Positions 1,011-46,100 of a DNA stretch of 64,000 nucleotides are shown here, in pieces. Position numbers and translations under genes: made by a program. The stretch is from a virus. The stretch spans positions 54,229 through 118,228 of the IMG/VR virus record IMGVR_UViG_3300044675_001548; one strand, written 5' to 3'. The notes below the pieces were generated by a model. It saw only the letters and a list, made by a program, of their open reading frames with translations. It ran no database searches and was not told the origin of the DNA. The stretch's first letter is position 1. Every line of letters starts with the position of its first letter.

Positions 1011-2105
1011 ATGAACAGGCAAGAAGTCCAAGAAGAAGCAATCAAAGCTACAGAGGGTAAACAACGTGTTTCAGTGGTACTTGGCACAGGGGTCGGCAAG
1101 ACCCTTGTTGGCCTAACTCATATAGAGCAAAACACTACAGAGTTGATGCGGTGTCTTATTGTAGCACCAAAGAAGGCAATCTTCCAATCATGGAAAGATG
1201 ATGCTGTGAAATTTGGTAAACAAAATTTATTAGGTAGAATGACATTCACTACTTACTTAAGTCTGAACAAACACAATCCTAATGATTATGATGCTGTCTA
1301 TTTGGATGAGATGCATAGTCTACTGGATAGTCACCGGGGATTCCTCCAGTTATACAAAGGTAAAATCCTTGGTCTAACTGGTACTCCACCTAAGCGTGAT
1401 TATTCAGAGAAAGGTAAGTTAGTAAATGAGTTCTGTCCTGTAGTATATACATTCAAAGCAGATGATGCTGTAGAGAATGGAATACTAAATGACTATCAGA
1501 TTATAGTACACCAGATTCAATTAACTGATCAAAAGGTGTATCCAGTCAAAGTAGGCAATAAACAGTATTTAGCATCTGAGATAGATAACTATACTTACTG
1601 GTCTAGAAGATTAGATGTAGGGTCAGGAAATGTGCATATGCTCAGAGTGATGAGAATGAAGGCTATGATGGAGTATCCTAGTAAAGAAAGATATACTAAA
1701 AAGCTAATGGAAAGCATTAGTACTAAGTGCATTATATTTGCTAATACTCAAGCCCAGGCTGATAGATTATGTGAATACAGCTATCATAGCGGTAATAAGG
1801 AGTCTGAGGATAATCTAGAACTGTTTAAGAAAGGTGAAATTACTAAGTTATCTACGGTACTGCAGTTAAATGAGGGTGTGAATATACCCAATCTTAAGCA
1901 AGGTATCATTATGCATGCGTATGGTAATGAGAGAAAAGCTGCACAGAGAATTGGTAGGTTACTCCGGTTAAACCCTGATGACAAAGCTATTGTACACATA
2001 CTATGTTATATGGATTCAATAGATGAAAAATGGGTAAAAGAAGCCTTGGAGAACTTTGACCAGACTAAAATTATTTGGAAAGATTTTAATATTTCATTAT
2101 ATTAA
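1011..2105 (+). CDS. SF2 DNA helicase (DEAD/DEAH-type)
   Basis: This 364-aa ATP-dependent helicase has the full set of superfamily 2 motifs: Walker A GTGVGKT (residues 25-31), motif II DEMH (99-102), motif III-like TGTPP (123-127) and a motif VI arginine finger region QRIGRLLRLN near residue 330. It is compact, without extra N- or C-terminal domains, as is typical of small phage SF2 helicases conserved in crAss-like genomes. It probably acts in DNA replication, recombination or repair. Its start is 4 bases after the ParB-like gene, and the ClpS-like gene begins 4 bases after its stop. Confidence 0.92.
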   Translation: MNRQEVQEEAIKATEGKQRVSVVLGTGVGKTLVGLTHIEQNTTELMRCLIVAPKKAIFQSWKDDAVKFGKQNLLGRMTFTTYLSLNKHNPNDYDAVYLDEMHSLLDSHRGFLQLYKGKILGLTGTPPKRDYSEKGKLVNEFCPVVYTFKADDAVENGILNDYQIIVHQIQLTDQKVYPVKVGNKQYLASEIDNYTYWSRRLDVGSGNVHMLRVMRMKAMMEYPSKERYTKKLMESISTKCIIFANTQAQADRLCEYSYHSGNKESEDNLELFKKGEITKLSTVLQLNEGVNIPNLKQGIIMHAYGNERKAAQRIGRLLRLNPDDKAIVHILCYMDSIDEKWVKEALENFDQTKIIWKDFNISLY

Positions 2106-2109
2106 TAGT

Positions 2110-2364
2110 ATGGAAGAGACTAAAACACACAAGCTGGCAATTTACAATGATGATGTAAATTCCTATGATTATGTTACAGCATGTCTTATTAAGTTATGTA
2201 AACATAATCCTATACAAGCAGAACAATGTGCTATTACAGCACATAATGTAGGAAAATGTGTAGTAAAATCTGGTGCTTTCTTGGACATGTTTGAGTTAAA
2301 AACTACTTTTGATGATCTAGACATTAAGTCTGAAATTGAGGAATATGCAAGTGATATGTATTAA
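2110..2364 (+). CDS. clpS: ClpS-like Clp protease adaptor
   Basis: This 84-aa protein reads as a nearly complete ClpS core. The N-degron pocket signature NDD is at residues 13-15 (context LAIYNDDVNSYDYV), the pocket histidine is at residue 45 (context ITAHNVGKCVVKSG), and the spacing matches ClpS. ClpS delivers proteins with N-terminal aromatic or leucine residues to ClpAP or ClpCP. The pieces QAEQC and GKC.VK.G resemble ClpS of Bacteroidota hosts, which suggests acquisition from the host lineage (inference). An in-frame start upstream would overlap the helicase; ATG 2110, just after the helicase stop, fits the family N-terminus. It could feed phage-chosen substrates to the host protease or compete with host ClpS. 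Confidence 0.85.
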   Translation: MEETKTHKLAIYNDDVNSYDYVTACLIKLCKHNPIQAEQCAITAHNVGKCVVKSGAFLDMFELKTTFDDLDIKSEIEEYASDMY

Positions 2365-2620
2365 TGATGAGAATAAGCCAAAAAGAATCTCTCCATATGA
2401 ATGGATTGAGGAAGGTAAAACCTATACTGTTGTAGAAGTATCTAAAATGGGTTTACAAGCCGGTAAATTTGGATATAAACTTAAAGAAGTGCAACTATCA
2501 GAACAGTCATTTCCATATGAATATTACAATGCAGACAGATTTGTACCAGTAGAGCCATTAAAACAAGCATTAAAAGAAGAAAGAGTAGAAGAAATCTCTG
2601 CAGATCTAGAACTAGTTTAA
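2345..2620 (+). CDS. Conserved hypothetical phage protein
   Basis: This 91-aa protein starts with MQVICINDENKP and contains EEGKTYTVVEV and a YYNADRFVPVE segment, a layout common in small proteins of Bacteroidota phages and prophages. It looks like a compact beta-rich (SH3-like) fold followed by a charged helix. An upstream TTG is in frame, but ATG 2345 gives the usual N-terminus. It overlaps the end of the ClpS-like gene by 20 bases in another frame. The function is unknown. Confidence 0.75.
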   Translation: MQVICINDENKPKRISPYEWIEEGKTYTVVEVSKMGLQAGKFGYKLKEVQLSEQSFPYEYYNADRFVPVEPLKQALKEERVEEISADLELV

Positions 2621-2630
2621 CTTAACACAT

Positions 2631-3071
2631 ATGGAAGAGTACACTAAAGAAGATGTAGTGGAAGCTCTTTTAAAAATCCCTAACAAGTCAAGACATAGAG
2701 TATTAGTTGATCAAAGAAGTTACTTAGTGGCTATTTTAGCTTATAGATTTTTATTAACTGAAAACACTATTGCTAGTCTTACTGGTTTTAAAAGAGACAA
2801 AGTAAACTACAATAAAAAACTTGCATTACAGTTACATGCAGATAAGTCTTATCAGCAAAATGTCTATGTGTATGCTCAAATGTTTCCATTTGATTTTAGT
2901 GTAATTGAACCAAATGAAATTGGTAGCCATAGATCAAAAAGAATTGAACTTGATCTTGATAGAAAGTTTTATAACAAGTTAAAAGCAATTGGAAATATAA
3001 AAGGTCACTCAGACATAAGAGTTACAATCAAATTTTTTTTAGAAAAAAGTATAAAAATATGGGAAGAATGA
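2631..3071 (+). CDS. Putative DNA-binding protein (HTH and ribbon-helix-helix-like)
   Basis: This protein has 146 residues. Residues 28-65 (AILAYRFLLTENTIASLTGF then KRDKVNYNKK) look like a helix-turn-helix with a recognition helix. The last 40 residues (IELDLDRKFYNKLKAIG ... TIKFFLEKSIK) resemble a ribbon-helix-helix or small dimerisation unit. I infer a DNA-binding regulator or replication accessory; no catalytic motif is present. It lies between small unknown genes and overlaps the next gene by 13 bases. Confidence 0.6.
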   Translation: MEEYTKEDVVEALLKIPNKSRHRVLVDQRSYLVAILAYRFLLTENTIASLTGFKRDKVNYNKKLALQLHADKSYQQNVYVYAQMFPFDFSVIEPNEIGSHRSKRIELDLDRKFYNKLKAIGNIKGHSDIRVTIKFFLEKSIKIWEE

Positions 3072-15477: not shown

Positions 15478-15893
15478 TGGCAAAGATGATTTTTGACAAA
15501 GAAGAAACAAGGAACTTAATGATGATGTTGCAATCTGAGGATGCAGATAATCATCTTATAGCATTTGAATCCTTGAAGAATGTTGATTATAATAAGTATA
15601 TAGGAGAATTATTAGTGCTTTATAAGTATGGTGGACACAGTTTAAACAATTGGCAAGTTAACTGTAAAAAAGTAACTGATAAACTTGATAAGATTTTAGA
15701 TCAAGCTGTACTAAGCAGTCCTAGAACATTAAGTTTGATTACAAAACACAGAGGTTCTAAAGCTTCGGTTGAGCTATTTATGGAATTCTTTATTAGGGAT
15801 ATGTCAAGGATGTTAGAGTCTATTGGCTATCCTACTGACAAATTTGAAATAGATATTAAATTTAAAGATGATGGACAGACAACAGAGTCTTAG
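15477..15893 (+). CDS. Conserved unknown, paralogous domain to the 18330 gene
   Basis: This is a 138-aa helical protein. The segment MLQSEDADNHLIAFESLKN (about residues 18-36) and the following region (DYNKYIGELLVLYKYGGHS) closely resemble residues about 212-260 of the 456-aa protein at 18330. The two genes therefore carry a shared domain. No catalytic motif is present. It overlaps the metallopeptidase/VWA gene by 26 bases. Confidence 0.6.
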   Translation: MAKMIFDKEETRNLMMMLQSEDADNHLIAFESLKNVDYNKYIGELLVLYKYGGHSLNNWQVNCKKVTDKLDKILDQAVLSSPRTLSLITKHRGSKASVELFMEFFIRDMSRMLESIGYPTDKFEIDIKFKDDGQTTES

Positions 15894-17052
15894 TAAAATT
15901 GCAAAAGAGTTAATGCTGAAAGAGCCCTTCTACGGGTTCTTTCTTATTGCTCTAAACAAAGTCTGGGATGCTAAAAGAGTTCCTACAGCAGGTGTTAGTA
16001 AGAATAATATTAATTATCAACTTGCTATTAATCCTGAGTTCTGGGAATCTCTTAGTGATAACCACAGACTTGGTTTACTTAAACATGAATTGCTACATAT
16101 TGCATTTGGACATCTTACTACTTTCTTTAAGTTTAGTGATAAGAAACTTGCTAATGTAGCAATGGACATGGAAATCAATCAGTATATATCTAAAGACTGG
16201 CTACCGGAAGGTGGTATTGATATAGATAATTATGCTGACTTAAATCTTGATAGGAAAGCTGGTTGTAGATATTACTATGACAAGCTGAAACAACTACAGG
16301 ATGAGAAAAATCAGAAGGGTACTTGTGGTAATGAACCTATGGACAAGTTACTAGATGCTATGGCAAATGGTGAACTTGATGAACATGCTACCTGGGAGGA
16401 GTTTGAAGACATGACTGAGGCAGAACAGAAGTTAATTGATAAACAATTACAAAAGGTTCTTGGTGATGCTAAAGAACAAACTCTTAAGAAGAAAGGTAAT
16501 GTTCCTGGAGAAATTGAAGGAGTAATTATTATTGAAGAAGTTGTAAAGCCTAAGTTTAATTGGAGAGGTTATATCAGAAGATTTACAGGAGTAAGTACTA
16601 AGGTATTTACTAAGAAAATCAGGAGGAAAGAGAACCGCAGATTTGATGCTAATCCTGGTCTGAAGGTAAAAATGAGACAGCATATGTTGTTAGCTATTGA
16701 TACTTCAGGTTCAGTAAGTGATTCTGAGTTGCAGGAGTTTATGAGTGAAATCTACCATATTTACAAATGTGGTGTTGATATTACTGTAGTACAGTGTGAT
16801 ACTGTTATTAGATCTATTGAACCTTACAAAGGTAAGTTTGAAATGGCTGTGCAAGGTAGAGGTGGAACTGAGTTTGACCCTGTCCTAGAATATTTTAATG
16901 CCAACACTAAAAAATATACAAGCCTGGTGTATTTTACTGACGGTGAATGTGGTTATTCTGTAAAACCTAGAGGTAATACTCTATGGGTTTTGTCAGAAAG
17001 GTCTTATATGAATACAGAGTTACCAGGTAAAGTTATTAAATTAGAATTATAA
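15868..17052 (+). CDS. VWA-domain protein with metallopeptidase-like domain
   Basis: This 394-aa protein has two parts. The N-terminal domain has the zinc motif HELLH (residues 73-77, with a further His at 82). The C-terminal von Willebrand A domain has the MIDAS motif DTSGSVS starting at residue 278, a second site GGTEFDP and LVYFTDGE. This is the architecture of DUF2201-type VWA partners of MoxR ATPases. The MoxR-like gene follows after 12 bases, so the pair probably works as a remodelling or metal-dependent chaperone complex. The cellular target is unknown. Confidence 0.85.
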   Translation: MMDRQQSLSKIAKELMLKEPFYGFFLIALNKVWDAKRVPTAGVSKNNINYQLAINPEFWESLSDNHRLGLLKHELLHIAFGHLTTFFKFSDKKLANVAMDMEINQYISKDWLPEGGIDIDNYADLNLDRKAGCRYYYDKLKQLQDEKNQKGTCGNEPMDKLLDAMANGELDEHATWEEFEDMTEAEQKLIDKQLQKVLGDAKEQTLKKKGNVPGEIEGVIIIEEVVKPKFNWRGYIRRFTGVSTKVFTKKIRRKENRRFDANPGLKVKMRQHMLLAIDTSGSVSDSELQEFMSEIYHIYKCGVDITVVQCDTVIRSIEPYKGKFEMAVQGRGGTEFDPVLEYFNANTKKYTSLVYFTDGECGYSVKPRGNTLWVLSERSYMNTELPGKVIKLEL

Positions 17053-17064
17053 AAATTAAAGATT

Positions 17065-18234
17065 ATGAATCAAGTGCAATTGAATGTAAATGAGTTAAAG
17101 GATTTTATTAAACATATGGTTAAGAATAACCAACATATCCAAGCTGAAGGTAAAGTTCCTGTGGCAGTGAATATTGAGGGTGATGCTGGTTTGGGTAAAA
17201 CTTCTGCAATCATGCAGTTGGGTAAAGAATTGCAAATGGAAGTTGTAAAGCTGAATTTATCTCAGCTAGAAGAATTGGGTGACTTGGTTGGTTTTCCTGT
17301 AAAAGAATTTCAAATTGCAAATGCTGAAGGTCAGACAAGATGGATTAATGAGTCTCAGATATCTGCAGCAAGTGCTAAAGGTTATAAAGTTGTAGGTAAG
17401 AGAATGTCACATGCTGCTCCTGAATGGATTCAGGGTAAAGGAGAGGGTGGTTTCTTGATTCTTGATGATTATACCAGAGCTGATGCAAGATTCATGCAAG
17501 CAACTATGGAGATATTAGACAGACAAGAATATGTATCTTGGAAGCTACCAAAGAACTGGCATGTAATCTTGACTACTAATCCAGACAATGGTGATTATAA
17601 TGTTACTTCTCTTGACGTAGCTCAGAAGACTAGATTTATCTCTGTTGAGTTAAAATATGATTCTGATGTATGGGCTAAGTGGGCAGAGAAAGCAAACATA
17701 GATGGTAGATGTATTAACTTCATGTTGATGCACCCGGAATTGGTAACTCAAAGAGTTAATCCAAGAGCTATTACTACTTTCTTTAATGCTATTAGTTCTA
17801 TTGAGAAGTTTGAAGCAGACCTGCCTCTAATCCAAATGATTGGTGAAGGTTCTGTTGGTGTAGACTTTAGTTCAATGTTTACTATGTTTATTAATAATAA
17901 GCTAGATAGAATTATTTCTCCAGTAGACATCCTGACTAAAGATGAGCAGTATGTAATGAATAGCTTAACCAATGCTGTTGGTAAGGATGATGATTTCCGG
18001 GCTGACATCTCTAGTGTTATTGCTACCAGGGTGATTAACTATTCTCTTACTTTAGCTGACAAAGGTTCAGTAGGTAAACCAATCATTGACAGGATAGCTA
18101 AACTTACTACTGACTGTGAAGCATTTACTGATGACCTTAGATACTATATGGTCAAAGAGATTGTTAACGGTAATAAAGTTAAGTTCTCTCAGCTCATGAT
18201 GAATCAGGACGTGGTGAAGATGGCTGTCAAGTAA
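17065..18234 (+). CDS. MoxR-like AAA+ ATPase
   Basis: This 389-aa AAA+ protein has Walker A GDAGLGKT (residues 39-46), Walker B FLILDDYTRA, sensor 1 VILTTNP and an arginine-containing DVAQKTRFISVEL. It resembles the MoxR family, which pairs with VWA-domain proteins. Its partner gene lies immediately upstream. By analogy the ATPase would drive conformational remodelling or protein assembly. It is followed by two small hairpins before the next gene. Confidence 0.85.
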   Translation: MNQVQLNVNELKDFIKHMVKNNQHIQAEGKVPVAVNIEGDAGLGKTSAIMQLGKELQMEVVKLNLSQLEELGDLVGFPVKEFQIANAEGQTRWINESQISAASAKGYKVVGKRMSHAAPEWIQGKGEGGFLILDDYTRADARFMQATMEILDRQEYVSWKLPKNWHVILTTNPDNGDYNVTSLDVAQKTRFISVELKYDSDVWAKWAEKANIDGRCINFMLMHPELVTQRVNPRAITTFFNAISSIEKFEADLPLIQMIGEGSVGVDFSSMFTMFINNKLDRIISPVDILTKDEQYVMNSLTNAVGKDDDFRADISSVIATRVINYSLTLADKGSVGKPIIDRIAKLTTDCEAFTDDLRYYMVKEIVNGNKVKFSQLMMNQDVVKMAVK

Positions 18235-31671: not shown

Positions 31672-34600
31672 TTATTCTCCTAAAAATGGATTAGTACAGT
31701 TATTATCTAGATCATCAGAGTCATCTTCTTCAGTATCTTTTCTCTCAGTAAAGTTAGTTAAATTTCCAGTGTTGTCAAGTTCTATTCTTGGTATACTACC
31801 AGTATGATATATAGTAAACTTAGCACCTATCTCTTGTAAGTAATCTATGAACTGACTGTCTACTCCCGGCATATCTCCTACTACAAACTCACCTCCATTA
31901 TTAAATGCTATTTCTATTTGATTTTTAGTTTCAGAACTAAGAGGTTTATTTTTTAATTCACCATTTCTTGCTAGCATTACCACTTTATTACCATCTACTC
32001 CAGTTTCTCTATATGCAACAACTGTTGGTGCATTATCAAAATAATCTAATGTATTATTGGTTTTATCCTTTTCATATATAGATTTGGCTGAAAAATTACT
32101 AGATGTTTGTTTATTTCTATCAAGTACTTCACCAATAAATCCATCAGCAATCTGTCTCATTGCTTTATCTTTACCATCACCTTGAGGAGTACCTTTACCT
32201 ACATTTTCAAATCCACCTTTATATCCTTGAAAGCCAGTACTTACAGGAGCTGTAGGTTGAGTAGATACAAACTGTTTAAATCCTTCTATATCTTGTTTAC
32301 CAGTTTGTTCTACATATTGAGAGTATAGTTGTTGAGCTTGCTGTTTTTGTTGTGGAGTTATAGGTGCATACACAGTCATAATGTTTATTCCTGCGTTTTT
32401 TAAAGAAAAATATCTATGATAACCATCATTTAATATACCATTAGAGTCAACAATTCCAGGTACTTTTTGCCCTTCTTTTTTTAAACTTTCAGTGTATTTA
32501 TTATTTTCTTCTTCACTTCTTTGTCCAAAATTACCTAATTTGATTTCAGATAAAGGTAATGTTTTTTTAACCCACCAAAAACCATTATTAGAATAGTTTT
32601 CTATAGTGCTTTCATCTTTGCTACCAAATACTTCATCAACCACATTATCTAATCTAATAAACCCAGCAGCTTCATATACAGCATTAGCTAATTCAGGATT
32701 AGAATCAAATAGTTCTGGTACACCTTCTTTAACTTCTCCTACTGGTTGTACAGTAGGTTGAGTAGGTTCTTCTCCAAATAAATTTAACTGAGTACCTGGT
32801 GTAGGTCCTTCTTCATCTGTTTCACTTTGTTCTTTTACAAGTTCATTGTAAATAAGTATCTGAGCAATAGCAAAGTTTGCAGTCTTTCTCTCTTTTATTT
32901 TAGTTTTTTCATTGTATTGTGGATACTTCTTTAAAAAGTCTTTTAAGAACTCTCTTGCACCATCTGCAGTTTCTTTTGTACTTTCAATTGGTTCATTAAT
33001 TTTTGATAATTCATCAAAGAATTCTATTATCTGGTCTTCATCATAAGATGATTGTATAAACCCTGGTGCAACCTCATTTGCAAGTTTAAGTGCTTCAGGA
33101 GATAATCTTCTGTTACCAGCTTCACTAAGTTTTTCAGCATCAAGCATGTATGACTTGAATGGAGTTTTAACTTGTGTAAGTCTATCAAATATAATTTGGA
33201 AAGCATTGTTATTCATGTAGTTATCTGAGAACACTTTAGAAGCATACTTCATTATGGTGTTATACTTATCTACAGGAAGAGCTGAATTAAATCCATATTT
33301 AGATTTACCTACACCATGCTGGTATACCATCATTTGTGGGAATAAACCAAAGACATCACTAATAACTTTATTTGATATTGGGTCTTCTACTTTCTTAATA
33401 TTAGGATCAGCAAGTTGTTTTATATTCTGTACATATATCTGAGCCTCTGATCCAGAGATAATTTTTCTGTCATTAAGAGTTAACATATTATCACCAGTCT
33501 TACTTGGTACTCTAGATATTTGTTCTAGTATTGGGAACTGTGCTTTTAGCTGAGGAAAATTCTTAATGATATTCATAATTTTATCAGTATATGAATGTTC
33601 ATTATCCTTCATTATTGCAGTTCTGTTGAATGTATTCATAAGAGCTTTATCTGCAAGATACATCTCTAAAGATGCTGCAGGTATTGTATCTTTATAAATA
33701 TCTCTTAAGTATTCTCTCTCTATGACATACTTTATAAAACTTGTTTTGTCTGGGAATAAAGCATCATCCTCTTTAAATGTCTTCAGACCTCTCTTAAAGT
33801 AAGAGTTATCTACCGCATTATTCTTACCAAGGTATAAGTTGTTATTATAGTCAGATTCAATTAAGTTATAGTTAACAGATATACCTGTTATTGTTCCTTC
33901 TGCATCTTTATTTATAATTACATCTTTCTCCTGGGAGTTATTACTAGTAACTTTATGACCTCTATAATCATCAGGTCTATTACTTATTTTACCATTGGAA
34001 TCTATAATATTGGACATATAGTTCTGGTAAATAAAGTTGATCATAGCATTCTTATATTCATCTATGAACCTAGAAGCACCATCTTTACCTTGACCAAAGT
34101 TAGCTTTGATAAGATCAGCATTTAATCTGATCTTAGACAATATAAAATCATTAAGTAATGTATTGTCTCTTAACTTAAACAATGGGTTAAGCATAGACAT
34201 GATGATTTCCTTGTCAAACAATGAACTAAGAACTGAATCAGTCTGTAGTGATGTCATTAAGGTTGGATCTACCTTAGAGTTATTAGCTAACAAATCAATG
34301 TTTACATCTCTATACAATATCTCTTGTGGGCTCTTAAATGTTTGAGTATCCGGTTTTGCATTTGACTTAGCAGTAGAAATACCTTTAAGTTGTTTTTCTA
34401 TTTCCAAGTAATGTAAGAACATAGAGATAGCAAGGTTGGAGTTTTCTTGACCTGGTTCTTTTACTAGTTTTTCCATGTCAGCCGAACTAAATACTCCATT
34501 CTTAAGAACATTTGGTTTGTTCACATAATTACTTACAGACTTAGCATACGTTGTACTTGTTATCTCAGGTTTAGTATAAAGTATTTTTGTCTGTGGACTA

Positions 34601-37600
34601 CCTGAGATTTTCTCAAGTCTTTTTATTAAAGATACTTCAAGGTTTCCGTTTCTGACCTCTTCTATAAATACCTCAACAGACATCCTGTTAACTTTTGGTT
34701 TAAAATCAAAAGGTCCTTGAGTAACAACAAACATATCACCTTTGTGCTCCTTAACAACATTTCTAAGCAATTGAGAAATTACTCCATTGACAACCATCTC
34801 AGCTGAGTTATACTTAACAAAGTTTTGATTTTTTGGAGCATCTCCAGTGAACTCACCATAAGCACTCTTTAATCTTTTTTGATTATCTACATACTGTCTT
34901 ACTAAAGGGTTGGAAACAAAGAAGATAGCATCTCTTACCGGAACCCCTGCTTTAAATAAATAGAACAGTGTACTAGCTACTTCCATGTTACCTTGAATAA
35001 AGAATATCCATGGGTTTTTCTCAACGTCCACAGTACCATTAATAGCCTGTGAAAATAATTCAGCTACACTATTAATACCATCAGCATCATAGATTTTTGA
35101 AAGGGATATTCTACCATCATCTGTTTTATTATGAGGTAGGAATAATCTCATTGGAACTTTTGGTTTATCTTTAAGTTCTACATCTCTTCCAAGTTTTTTA
35201 CTAAACTTAGTTAAGTAATAATCTTTTGGCATTGCCGCACCAATAGAATCAAAGACTGGACTGATAGCATTTTCATTAGCTGCAATACCAAGTACATCTT
35301 TACCTTCCATGTTTACACCATGCTTATGTACATTGTACAGTGGATGAAGTGTAATAGATGGAGTAATCTTTTTTCCATCTTTATCACCACCTACAAATCT
35401 ATCATAGTCACTTACTATGTTCTCAAGCTCTTCAGAAATGTCCTGTAAGATATATGTATCATTTGGTCTCACAAGGTTTACGTAATTATCTGGTAATTCA
35501 AGTACCCCTTTAATTGACTCAAGTATCTCATTCTCTGCAGCTTTCTTCTGTGCTTTAATCTGGCCAGCAAAACTTTTATTAGTCTTTTCTCTCTCAGCAT
35601 TTATCTTATTGATAAAGTCTTTGGTGTTTTCTTTACTAGTAACATATGTACCATCAGAAGCTATGTGTGGAAAGAATGTAGTTAACTTATCAACGTCAAA
35701 GTCACCACCAGACTTAGCAACAAGTTCAGATGGAACAAAGATCATGTTATCAGCACTAGGATCCATGAAATGATAAACCTCCATAAACTCCATAGAGTTA
35801 AGACCTTGAACTGGAATCCTAACAGCACTTAATGTAATTGACTTTCTGTTATCATCAGTATTAAGCCACTCTTCATCTTTGATAAGTTCATTAAGTCTTT
35901 GGATAGTACCTATCTTTTCACCCTTCCATTCTTTATTAAGTAAGTTATTGAACTCACCTTGGATACCAATGGAAACTTTCATGGCATTTGTATTACCATC
36001 TTTTCCGGGCTCATAGAAAGGAAGTGTATTACTACCTAGTAGTTTTTCTCTCTCAGCTTCAGTACCTTCAGTAAACTTAACACCACCAGACCACATACCT
36101 CTAGTAAGTGTACTTGATACTTGAACCAGTGCTTCACCATAAAGCTTTTGCTTAACAAATCTTTTCTCTACTATTGACATTATAGTCTTCTCAATTGTCT
36201 GAGCATCAAGATGTATTGACAAGTCATTTTTTAAAGTACCATCTTCATTAAGACCAATAGCCTCAACTAAATGTTCTGGCATATCTTTTCTTCTTAGCTC
36301 TCTTTGGATTAATCTAAGTAAGTTTTCAATATTACCTTTGTAACTATCACCTTCTTTCTTAAAGTTAATCTCATCAAGAAGCTCAAGCTTTAATAGATTA
36401 GTGTAGTTATCTACTGCAGCTTTATATCTATTAGCAGCAGACTCATTTTTAGTATTGATAAGTTTACCGCTTTCATATAGACCATTAAGAAGTAGTTTTC
36501 TTAACTGAGTTGCAAATACAACTTTACCTTTAGAATAATCTGGAACACTAGCTGATTCTTTAAGATACTCTACATATACAGTATTAGGAGTAAGAGTCAG
36601 TTTGTCCTTTATAATCTTTTGCTCTTTGTCAGCAAAAATGTTATCTGGTTTCCCGTCAGCAGTAACACCACCAACTTTAGATCCACTGGCAAATGTTGCA
36701 TACTGAATATTGTTTCTCAACATTTCATGATGTAGTGTCTCTAAGTCAGATCCTTTAATTACAGATGGTATTAAAGGCATAAGAGCAAACTTATGCATTG
36801 CTGTTACAGGTAACACTGTACCAGCTAAGTTACCATAGTTCTGCAACTTAAATACAGGGAAGAAATTTACAACATCTGCTGCTGTAATCTCTTGACGAGC
36901 TACTATTTTTTTATAAAGTGCTTCTTGCTGATCACTCCACTTATTCATACCCTTCTTAAGTGTACGGTATGCATCAATTGTAATATAACCTTGACCATCA
37001 GCCTCAGTCATGTTCAAGTACTTATCAGCTTCAATCTTAACTCTCTTCTCTACTTCTTCTGCAGCATTAGGTTTACCAGCATATCTTTTTTCATAATCCT
37101 CTCTGATAGCTTTTTCAATAATTGGTTTGTAAATACTATCTCTATCTGCATCCTGCATAATAGCTGTATTAACAGTACCATTGTAAGTAAACTTAACATA
37201 GTCTGAGCTACCTACAGTTTTAGCATAAGCATTTCTATCCCATGTAAATCCAGTTTCTTTACTGTTGACATCATTTATGAAATCTCTAAATGCTTTGTCA
37301 GTTCTGATTTTTGGTCCACTGGAAATAGCTCCTGAAGTTCTTTTATGAAACTCCTCTTTCTTATGATTGAACTGTGCAATGTCTCCAAAAATAACTTGAG
37401 ATATTTCAAAGTTATGAATCCAAGCATTATACATATAAGCTTTAGCAAGTATTCTTTCTTTTTCAGAGTTAGTTAGATTAGGTACATTTAATCTATCCAT
37501 GACAGTTTTATCTATATACTTAGCTTTTTGTAAGTATTCATAGACTTCTTCTGTACTATCATTAAAGTATTTAGTTACTCTTTGTTTTATTCTATCATAA

Positions 37601-40600
37601 AGCTTAGGATCATTTTTAATATAATCCTTTAACTTCACACCAGGTTTATTAACCACAGCTAGAATATCATCTTGTAAATCTTTATCAAGTATAGAATCAA
37701 AGTACACATATGACTCTCCATACATTTTACCATCCTTAAACTCTCTGTTATAACCAGTATAGTTCTTAGCTATAGAAGAGTTTTTAAATCTGTTGATTCT
37801 TTCAGTCTCTGCAGATATGTAAGGCAGAATAATATTGTCAAATGCAAATGATTCAGCATTACCCTCTGGTAAAAACTTATCTAAATCAACATAGTATCTT
37901 GGGTCTTTTCTATCACCAATCTCAGACATAATTCCACCTTCTATTCTCAAAGCCATAGCTGTAGACTTAGATCCAGCTCTTAGGAACTCCTGTAAACCAC
38001 CTTTAAAGAATGTGTGGAACTCCTGTAAGAATTTACTGTACTGATCTAATGATGTAGTATTAGTACCAATAGACTTGGTAATTTTATTTCCTTCATCATC
38101 TTCAACAGTGAACTCAGCAATTTGAGTACCCATGTCAAGTATTAAGTCAAGAGATCTGCTTGTTCTTCTTGCTTTCTCAGGCTTGCTTAAATCAAATAAG
38201 GATTTAGTAATTTGTAAGTCTTCAACAAAAGGATTTACTGCAGGATTGAATGAGCTCATATATTTTAACTCATCTTTTTTCCAGAAGTCTTCAAGCTTGG
38301 TAGCTTGATTAAAACCATTAATGATCATACTAGCACTACTATGCTCTATATGTTTGTTCACTAAGTTTCTTTCTGGGTTAAGTGCTGTAAAGTTAGAGGC
38401 ATCAACACCATACTTAACTTGTAATCCAGCTATCTTCTCAACAAAGTTTTTCTGTTTAGAACCTGCCGTATATACAAAGCTAGATGGTGGTCCAATAATT
38501 TGAGGTGAGATACCTTTTATTAAGGTAGCTAAAGGATCTTTCTTAAACTCAGAGATAACATCAGCAGCTGCTTTACTTACAGTCTTAGCATTCTCACTAT
38601 AGCTTATAGCTTTTATTGTATTGAATATATAATTAACACCATATTTTTTTACACCCTGTATACTATTGAGCTCATCCTTTATAACTTTGAGGTCATCAAG
38701 ATAGAAGCCCATTGCATTTAGGAACTTAAATGTTTTATCTGGGTCTAAGTTACCATTAGCATCTGAAAAGTTTCTTATTAATGCTGTTACATTTAACATA
38801 GATTGATTATCTATTCTTTCTATGTATGCATCTCTAGTATCAGCTTTAAATCTGTTACCAAATTCTCTAATAGTATTTGCTACATCTACGGCAGCATTTG
38901 TAAGTTCAGTTATGATACTTCCATCATCTTGTTTGAATCCAGTTAACTGTAGCAATGTAGCTGCAGGTTTCTGGAATGTTTGCCACATAGAAGTGATAAT
39001 GTCATTCTCTGCAGGAGTAGTAGGTAGTGATGGATCAGGTATCTTGTTTAACAACTGTTCAAACTCAGGATATATTTTTGAAGCCTCAACAATTGCAGTA
39101 TACATTTGCTTTGGATCAGTAATACCATTCAAAGTTCTTACAGTGTTTTTCCAGTTTTGGTTAAAGTTACCTAAGTCTTTGAAGCCTAGTTTGTTATTAG
39201 TAGTTATAAACTTAGTACCTTTCTTAGTTTGTTTAAATAAACTTTTTAAGATATAAACTATCTCTTGGTCAGCCATCTCTAATAGAGACATTTCACCGGC
39301 TTTCTTTTCAAACTTTTCACTAGCTGTTGCATCACCAGTTGCATCTTTCTCAGCATCTATATCAGTAACTTTTTGTCTGATAAGATCAAATCTACTATTC
39401 TCAATATGATACTTTATAACACCAGTAGTTGGATCACCCCAGTTGTTTAGAGCAGTCTGTAGAATTCTTACATTGTCTAATTCTTGACTTTGCTCATATG
39501 GTACTTCTGGTAATGTATTTACTACATCTTCATTAATATCTATTGAGGTAAATGTTTTGGCTTTCCCTTTAATATAATTATCATACTGGTTCTTAGCCTC
39601 TTCAATATCTGTAACTATTAATATATCAGCAGGCTGATCATTAATATTATTAACAGCCTTATGTTTGTAAAAGTCTGAGATTATCTCTATGGTTTCTTTA
39701 TATAATTCACCCTTCTGTCTAGTTCCCGCTTTTGTATCTAAATCTAAGTTATTATAATCATCAATCTGAGATCTTAAGAACACATATTTATGATTACCAT
39801 CTTTGTCTCTGATAACAGCTGCAGCATTTTTCTCTAATGCATCAGCATCTTGGAAGCTATTAAAAGGTTTCTCTGGCATGTATGTGATCTTACCAGGACC
39901 TTCTCCTTGTATTTGTCTAAGTCTTTCTTGAAATCTTTGTCTTACAAGTTCATATAACTGAACTTTGTTCTCAGATTTGGTCAAAAGTTTTAGAGTACCG
40001 GACTTACCATAGTTATTAGATGGGTCATTGTTTACCTCATCAACTATTTCTGATATAACAGAATCTATAGACTCAGAAACTAGTACAGCATCTTGTTTAT
40101 TTAATGAATCCTCCTTAGGTTGACTAACATTATTGATACCTCTGTTAAGTATATCAAACATTACATTATCTACAAGTGGAGTGTATATGTTCAATAAATT
40201 TGGGTTCTCACCAGCCATATACAGTCTGTAAAATAATTCATTAACTGTATCACTCTGTTCTGCTAAATTTGGAGACATGTCTTGTACTCCAGGTATACCA
40301 AATAACTTTTTAATAAAGTTCCAGATCTTTCTGAACAATGTATTTCTTACTGGAGAACCTTTCTTAGTCTTTTGATTTAGTGCATATTTCCTAAAATCCT
40401 CAGCTAAGAGTTCTTCCATTTCACGGAATGAATAATTTTGAACAAGGCCTGTTTCAAACACCTCAGCATATAAAGCTTTCTTCTCATCTCTGGTTAAATA
40501 TAACTGAGAGAATCCATGCCATGCTTCATGATATACATCAGTGAATGAACCTGACTTGTATATTTCTATCTTAGCAGGTTTACCACCATTAGCAAGAGTA

Positions 40601-43161
40601 TTACCGTCAACTATAAATCTGGCATATGCATCAGAGTTAACTATGTTTGCTAAGTGTGATAACTCAATATATTTGTTTAGTGGAGATTTGGTCCACCATT
40701 CTTTGGCATCATCTATTTGTTTAGCTGTAACACCTTTTGGTAAGGTAATCTTTCTATCAAGACTAAACAGACCACTAATACCAGTACCTTTATCTGAAGG
40801 TTGAGAAACATTAGGGTTGTTTATTACCTTATTAACTTGTTCCTCAACTGAGGTTTTTGGCTCTACTTTTTCTTCAACTATATCTCCTGGTTCTGCAGTG
40901 TAATCTCTTTCAGGCTCATCTTTTGCATAGTCAGTCTCAGCAGCCTGTCCAAGTAATACACCCTTCTTATCTCCTGTATAATCAAATACTTGTACTACAT
41001 CTGGTATAACTTTATTATCTACAGTTATAGTAGCAACTTCAAGAAGAACTTTCTGTCCATGCTTTGGAAATTTAAAGTTCTCAGATTCCTGTTTTTGCTC
41101 CAAGTATATTTTAACTCCTTGGCCTTCTTTGATTGGATTAGCAATCTTAAAGTTAGCATATGGTTTACCATCAACAGTGGTTCCTGCAGCAGTTGCTCCA
41201 ATAGTTGTAGTAGTCATACTCTTTGTAGATGAAGCTTTGATAGCATCAGCAAGATCATCTTTGTTAGTTCTTACAACAGATTTCTTTTCAGCATCTTCTT
41301 TGGCCTTTTCAGCAGCAGCATCTATCTTTTCACTAAGTTCTGTTGGAACTCTGAATCTCATATATGAGTTATAGAAAGGCACAGCCTTAGCACCATTTAT
41401 AAATATCTGAGCAGGAAGAGTAGTTAAGAAATCTAGGTAGTTAGCAGGAACTAATTTACCATCTTGAAAGTCAAGATATACTTCTTGATCCAATGCTGTA
41501 TCATCATATCTGATCTTGGCTGGGAATTTTGCACCACTAGCACTAGACTTACCTGACATAAGTATCTTATAAATATCTTCTTCAGCTGTAGGTGACTTTA
41601 AATCTATAGCTTGTCTTTTATTAGACTGAGCTTTAGCTTTGTCTGCTTTCATTTCTTGTTCAGTATATGTATCATATGTAAACAAGAACTGTCCTTTTTT
41701 AAATGCAGCATAGTGTCTTTTAGTACCAAAGAATCCTTTGTCTACAAAGAACTGTGAGTAGTAAGTATTCTTATCTTCATCAGATAAGCTAGATGTAAGA
41801 GCCTTAGCTATCTTTCTTGCTAAGTCTTCTGTTATATCTGATCTATCTACCTTATATGTTTCACCTTCAATGTTTAATACTGCAGCACCGGCTTCAAATC
41901 CTTTTGATGGAGTATTAAGTATTATCATACTACTTAATATCTCATTACTATTCATAGGAAATTGTCCGGTAAGGTTCTGTAAAGTTACCTTTTGATTAGG
42001 GTCAGTTTTAATTCTAACACCTGTTGAGATACTAGTTAACTTAAGTAACTTTGATTTACCTCCTTCTACAATAGAGTTTCTTAACTCATATAGAGCTTTG
42101 AATTGTTTTTGTTGATCTTCAGCAAGACCTTTTACAAAATCAGTAAATGACATCTTTTCACCCTTTTCAAATGCAGCCTTGTCTTTGTAACCCATGAAGT
42201 TCATCATGTTCTCAGCAATCTGTTCAGGAGTTTGAATTTGATCTGTTCTACCATAGATATCAGTAACTCTATATTTGTTACCTTCTTTTCTGGCATCACG
42301 CATCATTTGGTAAACTATTCTACCACCTTTTTCTTTAGTGGACACATTACCATTATTGTCAAAGTAAATGTAGTTTCCTTTCTCATCAGTAACCACTAAA
42401 GCAACAATCTCATTTGGTTTTTTTACTTTAGGATCCGGATTCTTAATGCTATTAGCTCTTAGTACAAAGTTATTACTGTACTCAGTTCTATCATTTACTG
42501 AAAGCTTAGATAGTAATATTGTTTTTAGTTTCAAGGTTTTACCCTGGAAAACAAAATCAGTATTAAGATCTCTGCCTAAATCATTTCTCATCTCATCATT
42601 TATCTTTCTAAGAGTAGCATAGATATATGATTTGTCTGGGTCTATTTGTTCTGCAAAGCTTTCAGGTTTTTTATTTGGATCTACTGTAAGATACTCTTCA
42701 AATGTAGAGCTAAAAGCACTGTCTGCTTTGTAATCATCTGTATCTTTAAACTCTGGTCTTGGTTTAACCGGGACAGGTTCTTCATCTTCACTAGCCTCTT
42801 CTTCTGCCTCAGCTATAATACTAAGTTGTTCTGGTGTTAAACCTCCACTAACCATTTTAAGAGTTTCAGCATAACCAGTCTCCGGGTTCATCAATGTTCT
42901 AGCTAGATTTCTAAGATCAGTCTCTGGACTTATCTCAACATCATCTAGTCTATAGCTTAATATACCAGCAAGATAAGGTATTGCTTGAACATACTCAACA
43001 GCAGGGCCTTCACCCTGTCTTTCTCTAAGTTGCTCATATAGTCTAGACATTAAAGTTCTAACATCAAAGGGTGTTCCTTCAGGAACATTTTGCATGTTTT
43101 TATAAACTACAGCATATAATACCTCCAACTGCTGGTTTCCCAGTGTACATGTAATAGCCAT
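31672..43161 (-). CDS. Giant polyprotein with virion RNA polymerase, peptidase-like, ParB-like and SLOG-like domains
   Basis: This protein has 3829 residues. An N-terminal region of about 850 residues of unknown fold precedes an HEAWH zinc motif at 878-882 (VYHEAWHGFSQ). The region about 1400-3000 contains the RNA polymerase core: SELVAKSGGDFDVDKLTTFF puts the metal-binding Asp residues at 2487, 2489 and 2491, with the upstream RIPVQGLNSMEF strand as in beta'-type barrels. This is the DxDxD signature of the crAss-like virion RNA polymerase (phi14:2 gp66 type). The C-terminus adds a ParB-like domain (NDGYHRYF, D3579) and a SLOG-like domain (FVVGDMPGVDS near 3760, then GAKFTIYHTG). It overlaps the upstream 2267-aa gene by one base. 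Confidence 0.88.
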   Translation of the reverse strand: MAITCTLGNQQLEVLYAVVYKNMQNVPEGTPFDVRTLMSRLYEQLRERQGEGPAVEYVQAIPYLAGILSYRLDDVEISPETDLRNLARTLMNPETGYAETLKMVSGGLTPEQLSIIAEAEEEASEDEEPVPVKPRPEFKDTDDYKADSAFSSTFEEYLTVDPNKKPESFAEQIDPDKSYIYATLRKINDEMRNDLGRDLNTDFVFQGKTLKLKTILLSKLSVNDRTEYSNNFVLRANSIKNPDPKVKKPNEIVALVVTDEKGNYIYFDNNGNVSTKEKGGRIVYQMMRDARKEGNKYRVTDIYGRTDQIQTPEQIAENMMNFMGYKDKAAFEKGEKMSFTDFVKGLAEDQQKQFKALYELRNSIVEGGKSKLLKLTSISTGVRIKTDPNQKVTLQNLTGQFPMNSNEILSSMIILNTPSKGFEAGAAVLNIEGETYKVDRSDITEDLARKIAKALTSSLSDEDKNTYYSQFFVDKGFFGTKRHYAAFKKGQFLFTYDTYTEQEMKADKAKAQSNKRQAIDLKSPTAEEDIYKILMSGKSSASGAKFPAKIRYDDTALDQEVYLDFQDGKLVPANYLDFLTTLPAQIFINGAKAVPFYNSYMRFRVPTELSEKIDAAAEKAKEDAEKKSVVRTNKDDLADAIKASSTKSMTTTTIGATAAGTTVDGKPYANFKIANPIKEGQGVKIYLEQKQESENFKFPKHGQKVLLEVATITVDNKVIPDVVQVFDYTGDKKGVLLGQAAETDYAKDEPERDYTAEPGDIVEEKVEPKTSVEEQVNKVINNPNVSQPSDKGTGISGLFSLDRKITLPKGVTAKQIDDAKEWWTKSPLNKYIELSHLANIVNSDAYARFIVDGNTLANGGKPAKIEIYKSGSFTDVYHEAWHGFSQLYLTRDEKKALYAEVFETGLVQNYSFREMEELLAEDFRKYALNQKTKKGSPVRNTLFRKIWNFIKKLFGIPGVQDMSPNLAEQSDTVNELFYRLYMAGENPNLLNIYTPLVDNVMFDILNRGINNVSQPKEDSLNKQDAVLVSESIDSVISEIVDEVNNDPSNNYGKSGTLKLLTKSENKVQLYELVRQRFQERLRQIQGEGPGKITYMPEKPFNSFQDADALEKNAAAVIRDKDGNHKYVFLRSQIDDYNNLDLDTKAGTRQKGELYKETIEIISDFYKHKAVNNINDQPADILIVTDIEEAKNQYDNYIKGKAKTFTSIDINEDVVNTLPEVPYEQSQELDNVRILQTALNNWGDPTTGVIKYHIENSRFDLIRQKVTDIDAEKDATGDATASEKFEKKAGEMSLLEMADQEIVYILKSLFKQTKKGTKFITTNNKLGFKDLGNFNQNWKNTVRTLNGITDPKQMYTAIVEASKIYPEFEQLLNKIPDPSLPTTPAENDIITSMWQTFQKPAATLLQLTGFKQDDGSIITELTNAAVDVANTIREFGNRFKADTRDAYIERIDNQSMLNVTALIRNFSDANGNLDPDKTFKFLNAMGFYLDDLKVIKDELNSIQGVKKYGVNYIFNTIKAISYSENAKTVSKAAADVISEFKKDPLATLIKGISPQIIGPPSSFVYTAGSKQKNFVEKIAGLQVKYGVDASNFTALNPERNLVNKHIEHSSASMIINGFNQATKLEDFWKKDELKYMSSFNPAVNPFVEDLQITKSLFDLSKPEKARRTSRSLDLILDMGTQIAEFTVEDDEGNKITKSIGTNTTSLDQYSKFLQEFHTFFKGGLQEFLRAGSKSTAMALRIEGGIMSEIGDRKDPRYYVDLDKFLPEGNAESFAFDNIILPYISAETERINRFKNSSIAKNYTGYNREFKDGKMYGESYVYFDSILDKDLQDDILAVVNKPGVKLKDYIKNDPKLYDRIKQRVTKYFNDSTEEVYEYLQKAKYIDKTVMDRLNVPNLTNSEKERILAKAYMYNAWIHNFEISQVIFGDIAQFNHKKEEFHKRTSGAISSGPKIRTDKAFRDFINDVNSKETGFTWDRNAYAKTVGSSDYVKFTYNGTVNTAIMQDADRDSIYKPIIEKAIREDYEKRYAGKPNAAEEVEKRVKIEADKYLNMTEADGQGYITIDAYRTLKKGMNKWSDQQEALYKKIVARQEITAADVVNFFPVFKLQNYGNLAGTVLPVTAMHKFALMPLIPSVIKGSDLETLHHEMLRNNIQYATFASGSKVGGVTADGKPDNIFADKEQKIIKDKLTLTPNTVYVEYLKESASVPDYSKGKVVFATQLRKLLLNGLYESGKLINTKNESAANRYKAAVDNYTNLLKLELLDEINFKKEGDSYKGNIENLLRLIQRELRRKDMPEHLVEAIGLNEDGTLKNDLSIHLDAQTIEKTIMSIVEKRFVKQKLYGEALVQVSSTLTRGMWSGGVKFTEGTEAEREKLLGSNTLPFYEPGKDGNTNAMKVSIGIQGEFNNLLNKEWKGEKIGTIQRLNELIKDEEWLNTDDNRKSITLSAVRIPVQGLNSMEFMEVYHFMDPSADNMIFVPSELVAKSGGDFDVDKLTTFFPHIASDGTYVTSKENTKDFINKINAEREKTNKSFAGQIKAQKKAAENEILESIKGVLELPDNYVNLVRPNDTYILQDISEELENIVSDYDRFVGGDKDGKKITPSITLHPLYNVHKHGVNMEGKDVLGIAANENAISPVFDSIGAAMPKDYYLTKFSKKLGRDVELKDKPKVPMRLFLPHNKTDDGRISLSKIYDADGINSVAELFSQAINGTVDVEKNPWIFFIQGNMEVASTLFYLFKAGVPVRDAIFFVSNPLVRQYVDNQKRLKSAYGEFTGDAPKNQNFVKYNSAEMVVNGVISQLLRNVVKEHKGDMFVVTQGPFDFKPKVNRMSVEVFIEEVRNGNLEVSLIKRLEKISGSPQTKILYTKPEITSTTYAKSVSNYVNKPNVLKNGVFSSADMEKLVKEPGQENSNLAISMFLHYLEIEKQLKGISTAKSNAKPDTQTFKSPQEILYRDVNIDLLANNSKVDPTLMTSLQTDSVLSSLFDKEIIMSMLNPLFKLRDNTLLNDFILSKIRLNADLIKANFGQGKDGASRFIDEYKNAMINFIYQNYMSNIIDSNGKISNRPDDYRGHKVTSNNSQEKDVIINKDAEGTITGISVNYNLIESDYNNNLYLGKNNAVDNSYFKRGLKTFKEDDALFPDKTSFIKYVIEREYLRDIYKDTIPAASLEMYLADKALMNTFNRTAIMKDNEHSYTDKIMNIIKNFPQLKAQFPILEQISRVPSKTGDNMLTLNDRKIISGSEAQIYVQNIKQLADPNIKKVEDPISNKVISDVFGLFPQMMVYQHGVGKSKYGFNSALPVDKYNTIMKYASKVFSDNYMNNNAFQIIFDRLTQVKTPFKSYMLDAEKLSEAGNRRLSPEALKLANEVAPGFIQSSYDEDQIIEFFDELSKINEPIESTKETADGAREFLKDFLKKYPQYNEKTKIKERKTANFAIAQILIYNELVKEQSETDEEGPTPGTQLNLFGEEPTQPTVQPVGEVKEGVPELFDSNPELANAVYEAAGFIRLDNVVDEVFGSKDESTIENYSNNGFWWVKKTLPLSEIKLGNFGQRSEEENNKYTESLKKEGQKVPGIVDSNGILNDGYHRYFSLKNAGINIMTVYAPITPQQKQQAQQLYSQYVEQTGKQDIEGFKQFVSTQPTAPVSTGFQGYKGGFENVGKGTPQGDGKDKAMRQIADGFIGEVLDRNKQTSSNFSAKSIYEKDKTNNTLDYFDNAPTVVAYRETGVDGNKVVMLARNGELKNKPLSSETKNQIEIAFNNGGEFVVGDMPGVDSQFIDYLQEIGAKFTIYHTGSIPRIELDNTGNLTNFTERKDTEEDDSDDLDNNCTNPFLGE

Positions 43162-46100
43162 TACTCACAAATATTTTGGTTAAATAATCTTTCTTCTAAG
43201 TCTTCAATACTCATTGAATCTGCCTCAGCTTCAATAGCATCTAATCTATTAAAGTCTTTTACAAACTCATCAATATTTGCTTTGGACTTAGCAACTATAT
43301 CTTGTTCTTTTTTAGTTAAAGGTTTTTCAGTTGTAGCTTTCATGTCTTCTAGACTATCTTTTAAAGTTGTTAATGCATTTACTTGTGCAAATGTAAGGTT
43401 TTCTGTTTTCTTACCTCTAGCTTTTCTAACAGTAACTCCTGTATCACTTACATCAGTTATCACTAAAGTATTTCCATAAATGGCCCACTTAGCCCCTCTT
43501 ATAAATATAGGTGTTTTTACAATAAGTTTGTCATTTTCTTTAAGATTTTCTTTATTTAATTTCAGAACTCCTTCAGATAATGAGTCAAGTTTCTCTTGTA
43601 ACTGGTTAGATAATTCAACAACTTCTGCCGCACTCAGTTTCTTAACAGCTTTATTTAAACTAGCTTGTGCTGCTTTAATAGAATCTTTAGATTTGGCAAG
43701 TCTGATCTTCATTGCAAGTTGTGCAGCCATATCAGGATCTCCTTTTCCAACACCAATAGGTTTTTCTTCAAGAGTTTCTTGAGCTTTAACTGCAGGTGAC
43801 GGAGCATCATCAGCATCTTGTCTTGGAATGCTTTCTAGATTAGCGGCCTCAGCAGATTCTTTAGACTCAACAGCCACACCTTTTCTAGGTATAATAGAGT
43901 CAATTTCTTTCTGGTAAATGCTTTTATCTAATGGTATCTCATATGAACCTGGTAATAATCCTGAAGCAACTTTTGGAGACTGTGCACTTAGTACTTTACC
44001 TGTCTCATCATCTTTAGTTATTTCAATTGGGAATATACCTATAGAGGCATTAAGACCTGTCATATTGAATAACAAGTTAGCATAGGCTGTTTGCTGTAAG
44101 ATATAGTCTTTTTGTTTTTGGTAGCCAAATTTCTTTTTGTCCTGGAAGTTATTCCATTTACTAGCCTCACCTGTTTTAACGTCAACTATCTTAACATTAC
44201 CATCTCTGTCTACTATGATGATATCTATCTCACCGGCTATACCAGCATCCTTGTCAAATACTCTGATGTCTTTGGTATATACAGCAATCTCATTTCTATC
44301 AAACTTAGCTTTAAGATCTGTAACAATACCTTCTGGACCAAACAAATTGTTATATGCTATTCTGGTTATGCTGTTTTCATCATATACAGCTTTACCTATC
44401 TTAGGGTCAAATATGTTTTTGATTTGGTTATCAATGTAGTTACCTGCAATTCTAGAAGCTTCATAAGTCTTCTCTTTGACTATAGCCATAACCTCATTTC
44501 TAATCTCATCTGAAAGACTACTTGTGTCTCCACTTGTTTGAGCTGATGGGTCTTGATACTCTATTGATATAAAACTTGCATCATCATTTTTATGATTTTT
44601 TCTAAAGTCATCAAAATTTAAGCTCTTTCCAAAACCTGCTTTTATAAAGTCTTGTATTGCTTCTTTAGTTTCAATAAAGTCAGATGCTAAAACAAGTCTT
44701 TCACCAGGTTTAAGTTCAACTGTATATTTTGATATCTTTTTAGCAGGCTCAGCACTTGTGTTACCATTAGAATCAACACCCCATGTAAAGCCATCTACAA
44801 AAGGTGAAGTACTCAGACCTTCTGCTTGTCTTATGTTATTATTTTTATCTACTACAAAAAAAACAGCATCACCTACATGTTCAATCTCATATTTATTATT
44901 ACTAACTCTTTGAGCTTTTACACCAACAGCACCAACAGCTCTTGTTAACCAGCTATCTTTATCAGTTATAGATTCTGGATCTTTTAAAATTCTAAGTAGA
45001 CCATTTATAGCAATTATAGTAGGATCCGCAAGACCAGAAAAACTTGTATTATCAAACTTTACAGAATCTGAAATAAAACCATTACTCTGTAATAGTTTAA
45101 ATATTTCTTCTGTAGTAACTTGATTGTTTGCTTTATAAGCATTTGCTATAATATCAAAAGGATTTTTTTCCTTAACACCTCTAAATTGATTTATCATCAA
45201 TCTAGCAGCATCATGTGGCTGAAAGAAAGGTACTTTATTTACTCCACCCATTCCATCAGCAACAATAAATACACCTTTGTTATTATCTACAAAAACTGCA
45301 TCTTGATTCTGTCTAGATGAATCTTTACCCATTTTACCAGCAGCTCCAAAAATAACCCCATCTTCCTCTTTTATTTCAGCTTCGGTTGGCTGGAAAATAG
45401 TTGATGTTTTAGTAGCTTTTGGTTTACCACCTTTTAAAGTAGGTAAGATTTTTTCTAATTCTCTTTTTAGTTCATTGTATGTGTACTCACTAAAGCCACC
45501 AGGTCTTTTAGTTCTTAAGTCTGTAATGAAATCTTCTACAGACTTTCCTTTTACAAGTGTCTGATTTACAGATGCTAGCACTTTAGTTTCATCTGAATAA
45601 GAATACTCAGTTACACCAAGCTCTTCAATAGCTTTAGTAACCCTTCTCATCAATTGATTTTCTACATAGTAGGCTTCATTAATTTTTTCAAGCTTAGACT
45701 GAGCATCAAACACAAGTTGTAGTCTATTGATAGTCTCTTGCATTTTTTCAGATACCTCTTTAGTATCTCTACTCTTAAGGTATCTATCAATCTTTGCTTT
45801 ATCGGCCTTAGCTTCTGCTAGCATTAAGTTCTCATCAGGAGTTCTCTTATCCTTATTCTGCATATTGTTAATCTGCATCATAAGCAACTGTCTGTTCTTT
45901 TTAATTACAGACTCTGGCTGATCAGTTAGATCAACTTCTTTACCTGATAATTTTATAACTAATTTTTCTGGAACTCCTGTGACTTCAGTAGCAGCAGTAA
46001 GTTTAGACTTTTTATTATACTCATCAATAATTCTTCTAGCTACACCACTTGTTCTAGCAAATGCTCTAAGCTCATTAAAGAACTGCTCATCATCAAACTC

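What the first reader, a model, noticed from the sequence alone, without database searches (positions are those of the whole stretch)
2110..2364. Phage-encoded ClpS-like N-degron adaptor
The protein keeps the ClpS pocket residues (N13, D14-D15, H45) and the host-like pieces QAEQC and GKC.VK.G. A phage ClpS could direct ClpAP/ClpCP to new substrates, spare phage proteins by competition, or recycle host proteins. It lies in the early-type block next to a helicase rather than with virion genes. I am not aware of a characterised role for ClpS in this phage group.
Basis: partly seen in the sequence, partly recalled or inferred. Interest (0 to 1): 0.75.

Follow-up and report, generated by a model that had tools for sequence, protein, structure and literature searches.

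The report
Tailless ClpS adaptor in crAss-like phages
A large group of crAss-like phages carries, almost without exception, a copy of the bacterial protein ClpS, which hands marked proteins to the cell's Clp protease; in every phage copy the flexible tail that the protease pulls on is missing, which suggests that the phage uses it to block or sequester rather than to deliver.

Summary
The ClpS call is right. Window 2110-2364 encodes an 84-aa protein scoring 53 bits to Pfam ClpS (cut-off 23). Its AlphaFold model matches only ClpS structures at E<0.001. It belongs to one phage clade nested in Bacteroidota ClpS, under purifying selection.

First, the N-terminal extension (NTE) is gone: the 97 distinct phage copies start 11-12 residues before the N-D-D motif (85 have no ATG further upstream; 47 have a stop within 20 residues). 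Cellular Bacteroidota copies mostly start 23-43 before it. In E. coli the NTE is what ClpA pulls during delivery. Second, clpS is near-core in this crAss-like group (77 of 80 helicase loci; one miss is a contig end). It overlaps a small gene with which it is always jointly present or jointly absent.

Residues gripping the substrate's amino terminus are intact here but eroded in about a third of relatives. Best reading: a stable, non-delivering ClpS core that competes with host ClpS for N-degrons and/or the Clp unfoldase. Rivals: a two-part adaptor with its neighbour, or an ordinary adaptor. Phage ClpS as such was already reported in jumbo phages. No binding was tested.

The parts
2110..2364 (+). 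clpS-like gene, 84 aa, ClpS core without N-terminal extension
   Evidence: Pfam ClpS 53.2 bits; AF2 model and Foldseek; Met1 lies 12 residues before N of N-D-D in all 49 distinct proteins of the first set
2110..2127 (+). all that is left of the N-terminal extension: residues 1-6 (MEETKT) before strand 1 at residue 7
   Evidence: DSSP on the model; Bacteroidota ClpS mostly start 23-43 residues before the N of N-D-D
2146..2154 (+). N13-D14-D15, equivalent to E. coli N34-D35-D36
   Evidence: sequence; ungapped profile alignment to E. coli ClpS over residues 6-49
2215..2229 (+). QAEQC motif shared with Bacteroidota ClpS
   Evidence: invariant in 50 phage proteins; E, Q, C identical in 65 host proteins
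2242..2244 (+). H45, equivalent to E. coli H66
   Evidence: sequence; alignment
2345..2620 (+). co-inherited downstream gene, 91 aa, weakly SH3-like barrel plus C-terminal helix; its start overlaps the last 20 nt of clpS
   Evidence: overlap of 20 nt in most loci; present or absent together with clpS; model and Foldseek
1011..2105 (+). upstream SF2 helicase, 364 aa; its stop lies 4 nt before the clpS start codon
   Evidence: Pfam ResIII/Helicase_C, PHROG 16; conserved upstream neighbour
2631..3071 (+). third gene of the conserved block; directly follows the helicase where the clpS pair is missing

Best explanation
The gene encodes a stripped-down ClpS core of Bacteroidota type. It folds like ClpS (shown by prediction) and in this copy keeps the residues that hold a protein's N-terminal amino group (shown by alignment). 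It lacks the N-terminal extension that the Clp unfoldase threads and pulls to release the substrate (shown by sequence across the family). Inferred mechanism: early in infection it binds N-degron-bearing proteins and/or the ClpS docking site on the host Clp unfoldase, does not hand substrates over, and is itself not pulled or destroyed. It thus competes with host ClpS and slows N-degron proteolysis, or shifts what the host protease degrades. The co-inherited, overlapping downstream gene may act in the same step.
For: Family and fold. No NTE: Met 12 residues before N in 49 of 49 distinct proteins, 31 of them with no alternative start 8 or more codons upstream; in the set of 97, the start is at 12 (11 in one), 85 have no ATG further upstream in frame and 47 are stop-bounded within 20 residues. 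Cellular relatives: nearest ATG at 23-43 residues in 64 of 68 loci; in a sample not chosen by likeness to the phage, 27 of 28 at 25-37 and one at 16. In E. coli the NTE enters the ClpA channel and blocking its entry inhibits ClpS-assisted degradation (PMC9663308); NTE truncation abolishes ClpAP degradation of ClpS in vivo (PMC12974527). Purifying selection, one clade at 100/100, near-core gene. Candidate host genomes have ClpS, Clp_N unfoldases and L/F-transferase, while the phage record shows no ClpP and no Clp_N protein, so any Clp partner is probably the host's.
Against: The NTE requirement comes from E. coli ClpA; Bacteroidota Clp unfoldases could work differently. No binding or degradation was tested. 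The amino-terminus triad is broken in 33 of 97 relatives, so N-degron binding cannot be the shared function of all. E. coli-type unfoldase contacts could not be mapped with confidence in helix 3. Another protein could supply the missing tail in trans.
Confidence: 0.45

Rival explanations
1. Two-part adaptor: the phage ClpS core binds substrate and the overlapping downstream protein (SH3-like barrel with a C-terminal helix) engages the unfoldase in place of the missing NTE, so that together they deliver chosen host or phage proteins, as the ClpS1-ClpF pair is proposed to do in plastids.
For: The two genes were never found one without the other where both could be seen: 75 with both and 2 with neither in helicase loci, 68 with both and 6 with neither in third-gene loci, 80 of 80 downstream-gene loci with ClpS. 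The lacking loci fall into at least three helicase lineages at 74-76% identity. The downstream gene starts 20 nt inside clpS, which allows translational coupling. ClpS1-ClpF precedent: PMC7966870.
Against: Overlapping genes tend to be lost together for mechanical reasons. The SH3-like resemblance is weak (best Foldseek E 0.2). No interaction was modelled.
Confidence: 0.22
2. Ordinary adaptor: phage ClpS delivers N-degron proteins to host Clp despite the short N-terminus, raising or redirecting host proteolysis.
For: N13, D14, D15 and H45 and a ClpS fold are present in this copy; jumbo-phage ClpS has been proposed to do this (PMC7824862).
Against: NTE missing across the family, unlike host ClpS and most jumbo-phage ClpS; erosion of the triad in a third of relatives.
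Confidence: 0.2
3. Repurposed ClpS fold: the protein has left the Clp system and binds another early phage or host partner; pocket remnants are inheritance.
For: The D36 position is K, S, N, H or P in 16 of 97 and the H66 position is D or N in 18 of 97; position 67 changed from mostly aromatic in hosts to N or E in phages.
Against: N34 and D35 positions are invariant in all 97 and Q-A-E-Q-C is shared with hosts.
Confidence: 0.12

Closest known systems
Bacteroidota (Flavobacteriia-type) cellular ClpS
   Same: Core sequence (about 37-52% identity), NDD.N, QAEQC, H, GKC.VK.G, fold
   Different: Cells have an N-terminal extension (Met mostly 23-43 residues before N; phage 12) and an intact N/D/[DE]/H set in all 65 compared; phages lack the NTE and a third have a broken set
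ClpS of jumbo and huge phages (Phosso, PA5oct, Atu_ph07; LR745206, LR756504, LR756502)
   Same: Phage-encoded ClpS, already described for some (PMC7824862, PMC6102473)
   Different: They keep 25-30 residues before the N of N-D-D; other phages; 36-43% identity at most. Vibrio phage 2.275 is an exception with a short N-terminus like ours
Leptospira ClpS1
   Same: Tyr at the Met40 gate (as in the window protein) and Asp in place of His66 (as in 17 phage relatives); still binds ClpA and inhibits its ATPase (PMC12493166)
   Different: Cellular, described with an unstructured NTE; the window copy has His
Plastid ClpS1-ClpF binary adaptor
   Same: ClpS acting with a second small protein (PMC7966870)
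   Different: ClpF has UVR and YCCV domains; the phage neighbour is a 91-aa protein with no Pfam match

Membership tests
ClpS (PF02617) | Profile score above curated cut-off | tested here: met
   53.2 bits, cut-off 23
[quoted passage not shown]
   AF2 model pLDDT 86.7; Foldseek to E. coli ClpS 3o2b TMq 0.83, rmsd 1.0
ClpS N-degron adaptor | Residues contacting the substrate alpha-amino group (E. coli N34, D36, H66; from Caulobacter N47, D49, H79) | tested here: met
   N13, D15, H45 in this copy; intact in only 64 of 97 relatives
ClpS N-degron adaptor | N-terminal extension that enters the unfoldase channel | tested here: not met
   About 6 residues before strand 1 in this copy; family-wide
ClpS N-degron adaptor | Unfoldase N-domain contacts (E. 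coli E79, E82, K84) | tested here: inconclusive
   Helix-3 register relative to E. coli is unsure; profile alignment ends at residue 49
ClpS N-degron adaptor | NCBIfam ClpS equivalog score | tested here: not met
   Best 28.9 bits against a cut-off of 143
ClpS N-degron adaptor | Binds N-degron peptides and delivers them to a Clp protease | not testable with these tools
   Needs biochemistry

The most novel reading that the evidence does not exclude
A whole group of crAss-like phages has turned the host's N-degron adaptor into a dedicated inhibitor by deleting its unfoldase-engaging tail: a near-core phage anti-adaptor against the Clp/N-degron pathway, perhaps working with its overlapping neighbour.
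Probability: 0.38. Interest if true: 0.8.

Novelty: new variant of a known kind. Interest (0 to 1): 0.58.

Why it matters
Why phages carry ClpS is open; [quoted passage not shown] A family that is near-universal in its phage group and has lost the delivery tail argues for a different use and gives a clean test: the loss is natural, conserved, and can be reversed or copied by swapping the tail. It would point to N-degron proteolysis as something these phages must control in their hosts, probably Bacteroidota.

Tried and rejected
The conserved C-terminal end (Y-E/A-S/G-x-M-H/Y) was first thought a new functional motif; it coincides with the overlapping start of the downstream gene, so its conservation needs no ClpS function. 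A match of D59-x-x-E62-x-K64 to E. coli E79-x-x-E82-x-K84 was considered and dropped: it needs a one-residue shift that the ungapped loop and the helix start do not support. A longer product from the upstream TTG at 2056 was rejected: that stretch lies in the helicase's coding end and about half of the relatives have a stop that forbids it. Literature searches for ClpS in crAss-like phages or as a viral auxiliary gene returned nothing. A first regular-expression extraction found nothing and was corrected. E. coli papers on NTE length are not held; that at least about 14 NTE residues are needed is from memory only.

Full report
What it is. The ORF at 2110-2364 is as described. It scores 53.2 bits to Pfam ClpS, above the cut-off of 23, and is the only ClpS in its 118,228-base virus record. 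A model from 50 phage sequences has pLDDT 86.7 and the ClpS order of strands and helices. Foldseek hits in the PDB at E<0.001 are all ClpS, including a malarial ClpS-containing fusion. The match to NCBIfam ClpS equivalogs is far below their cut-offs, so it is a divergent member.

Which phage. The record has a terminase, portal and major head protein that match PHROGs 6681, 6547 and 11589. Its terminase is closest to crAss-like and Flavobacterium phages at 23-27% identity, and its head protein to Leptolyngbya phage Lbo-JY46 and Cellulophaga phages. I call it distantly crAss-like; formal placement was not attempted. The host is not known; ClpS relatives in genomes are almost all Bacteroidota. 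The two cellular ClpS nearest in the tree come from records labelled Bacteroidales and Alphaproteobacteria; they are nearly identical, so the second label may be a binning error.

How widespread. Profile search found 160 viral relatives, of which 80 were kept, with 49 distinct proteins counting the window. To avoid choosing loci by ClpS itself, I searched with the neighbours. Of 80 loci found by the helicase, 77 carry ClpS; one miss is a contig end and two are real. Of 80 found by the downstream gene, all carry ClpS. Of 74 loci found by the third gene with enough sequence upstream, 68 have ClpS and 6 do not. These samples overlap in contigs, and only the best 80 of each search were seen.

The missing tail. 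In all 49 distinct proteins Met1 lies exactly 12 residues before the N of N-D-D; 31 have no alternative start 8 or more codons upstream. In the larger set of 97 the start lies at 12 (11 in one; a few have a further Met inside strand 1), 85 have no ATG further upstream in frame, and 47 have a stop within 20 residues. Cellular ClpS: among 68 Bacteroidota-type loci the nearest ATG 13 or more codons upstream lies at 23-43 residues in 64, mostly 26; one has an extra ATG at 14 besides longer starts, and three have no ATG. In 28 readable ClpS from a class-wide sample not chosen by likeness to the phage, 27 are at 25-37 and one at 16. E. coli has 33 residues. Jumbo- and huge-phage ClpS keep 25-30; Vibrio phage 2.275 has 12.

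Why that matters. In E. coli the NTE (residues 2-26) lies in the ClpA channel; ClpA pulls on it during delivery, and blocking its entry inhibits ClpS-assisted degradation (PMC9663308). Truncating it stops ClpAP from degrading ClpS in vivo (PMC12974527). A core without the NTE should therefore be able to bind but not deliver, and should be stable. This step is inference, and rests on E. coli.

The pocket. The amino group of the substrate is held by residues equivalent to E. coli N34, D36 and H66 (Caulobacter N47, D49, H79; PMC12493166). The window protein has all three. Across 97 phage proteins N34 and D35 are invariant, position 36 is acidic in 81, and position 66 is His in 79 (Asp in 17, Asn in 1); 64 have both. 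All 65 distinct host proteins have N, D, D/E and H. So the pocket is retained here but is not under the same constraint family-wide.

Origin and selection. The phage proteins form one clade (100/100) among Bacteroidota ClpS; the grouping holds on core columns alone (SH-aLRT 99). Few columns limit finer placement. Median pairwise dN/dS is 0.23 with the overlapping end left out.

The neighbour. The downstream gene begins 20 nt inside clpS in most loci. Where both could be seen they were always both present or both absent: 75/2 and 68/6. The lacking loci fall into at least three helicase lineages. The conserved end of ClpS is explained by this overlap. The neighbour's model is weakly SH3-like. 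Three loci have a GIY-YIG-type ORF directly after clpS.

Host pathway. Eight Flavobacteriia genomes have ClpS, Clp_N unfoldases and L/F-transferase. The phage record shows neither ClpP nor Clp_N, though it may be incomplete.

Novelty. Phage ClpS is known in jumbo phages (PMC7824862; PMC6102473) and in uncultured phage proteins. No paper on ClpS in crAss-like phages was found in the held library. New here are the near-core distribution in this phage group, the conserved loss of the NTE, and the linked gene. Steps shown: homology, predicted fold, missing NTE, conservation, linkage. Steps inferred: binding to N-degrons or the unfoldase, failure to deliver, benefit to the phage.

Noticed in passing
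window 60520-63318 (-): 932-aa protein with an N-terminal SET domain (Pfam PF00856, E 9e-9) on the virion-gene strand; the left end of the record (G000 1-549) begins a close paralog.
   Followed up: partly
window 43161-49964 (-): 2267-aa protein with a PP2C-phosphatase-like VADGMGG stretch and a weak PD-(D/E)XK match.
   Followed up: no
window 31672-43161 (-): 3829-aa protein with a SGGDFDVDK stretch reminiscent of crAss-like RNA polymerase proteins; from memory, not tested.
   Followed up: no
window 15868-18234 (+): DUF2201 metallopeptidase/VWA gene next to an AAA ATPase gene.
   Followed up: no
L019 5275-5991; also L039, L089: GIY-YIG/NUMOD1 homing-endonuclease-like gene (tested in L019) directly after clpS.
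   Followed up: partly
L304 and L305, 3595-3624: Natural absence of both clpS and its overlapping neighbour: helicase abuts the third gene.
   Followed up: yes
L176 (Vibrio phage 2.275) 392-748: ClpS-like protein with a short N-terminus and a long C-terminal extension in an unrelated jumbo phage: possible second loss of the NTE.
   Followed up: no
L008 158-1033; L304 5113-5979: Radical-SAM-like gene (GHGCLYNCxYCYM) in the same early block of relatives.
   Followed up: no
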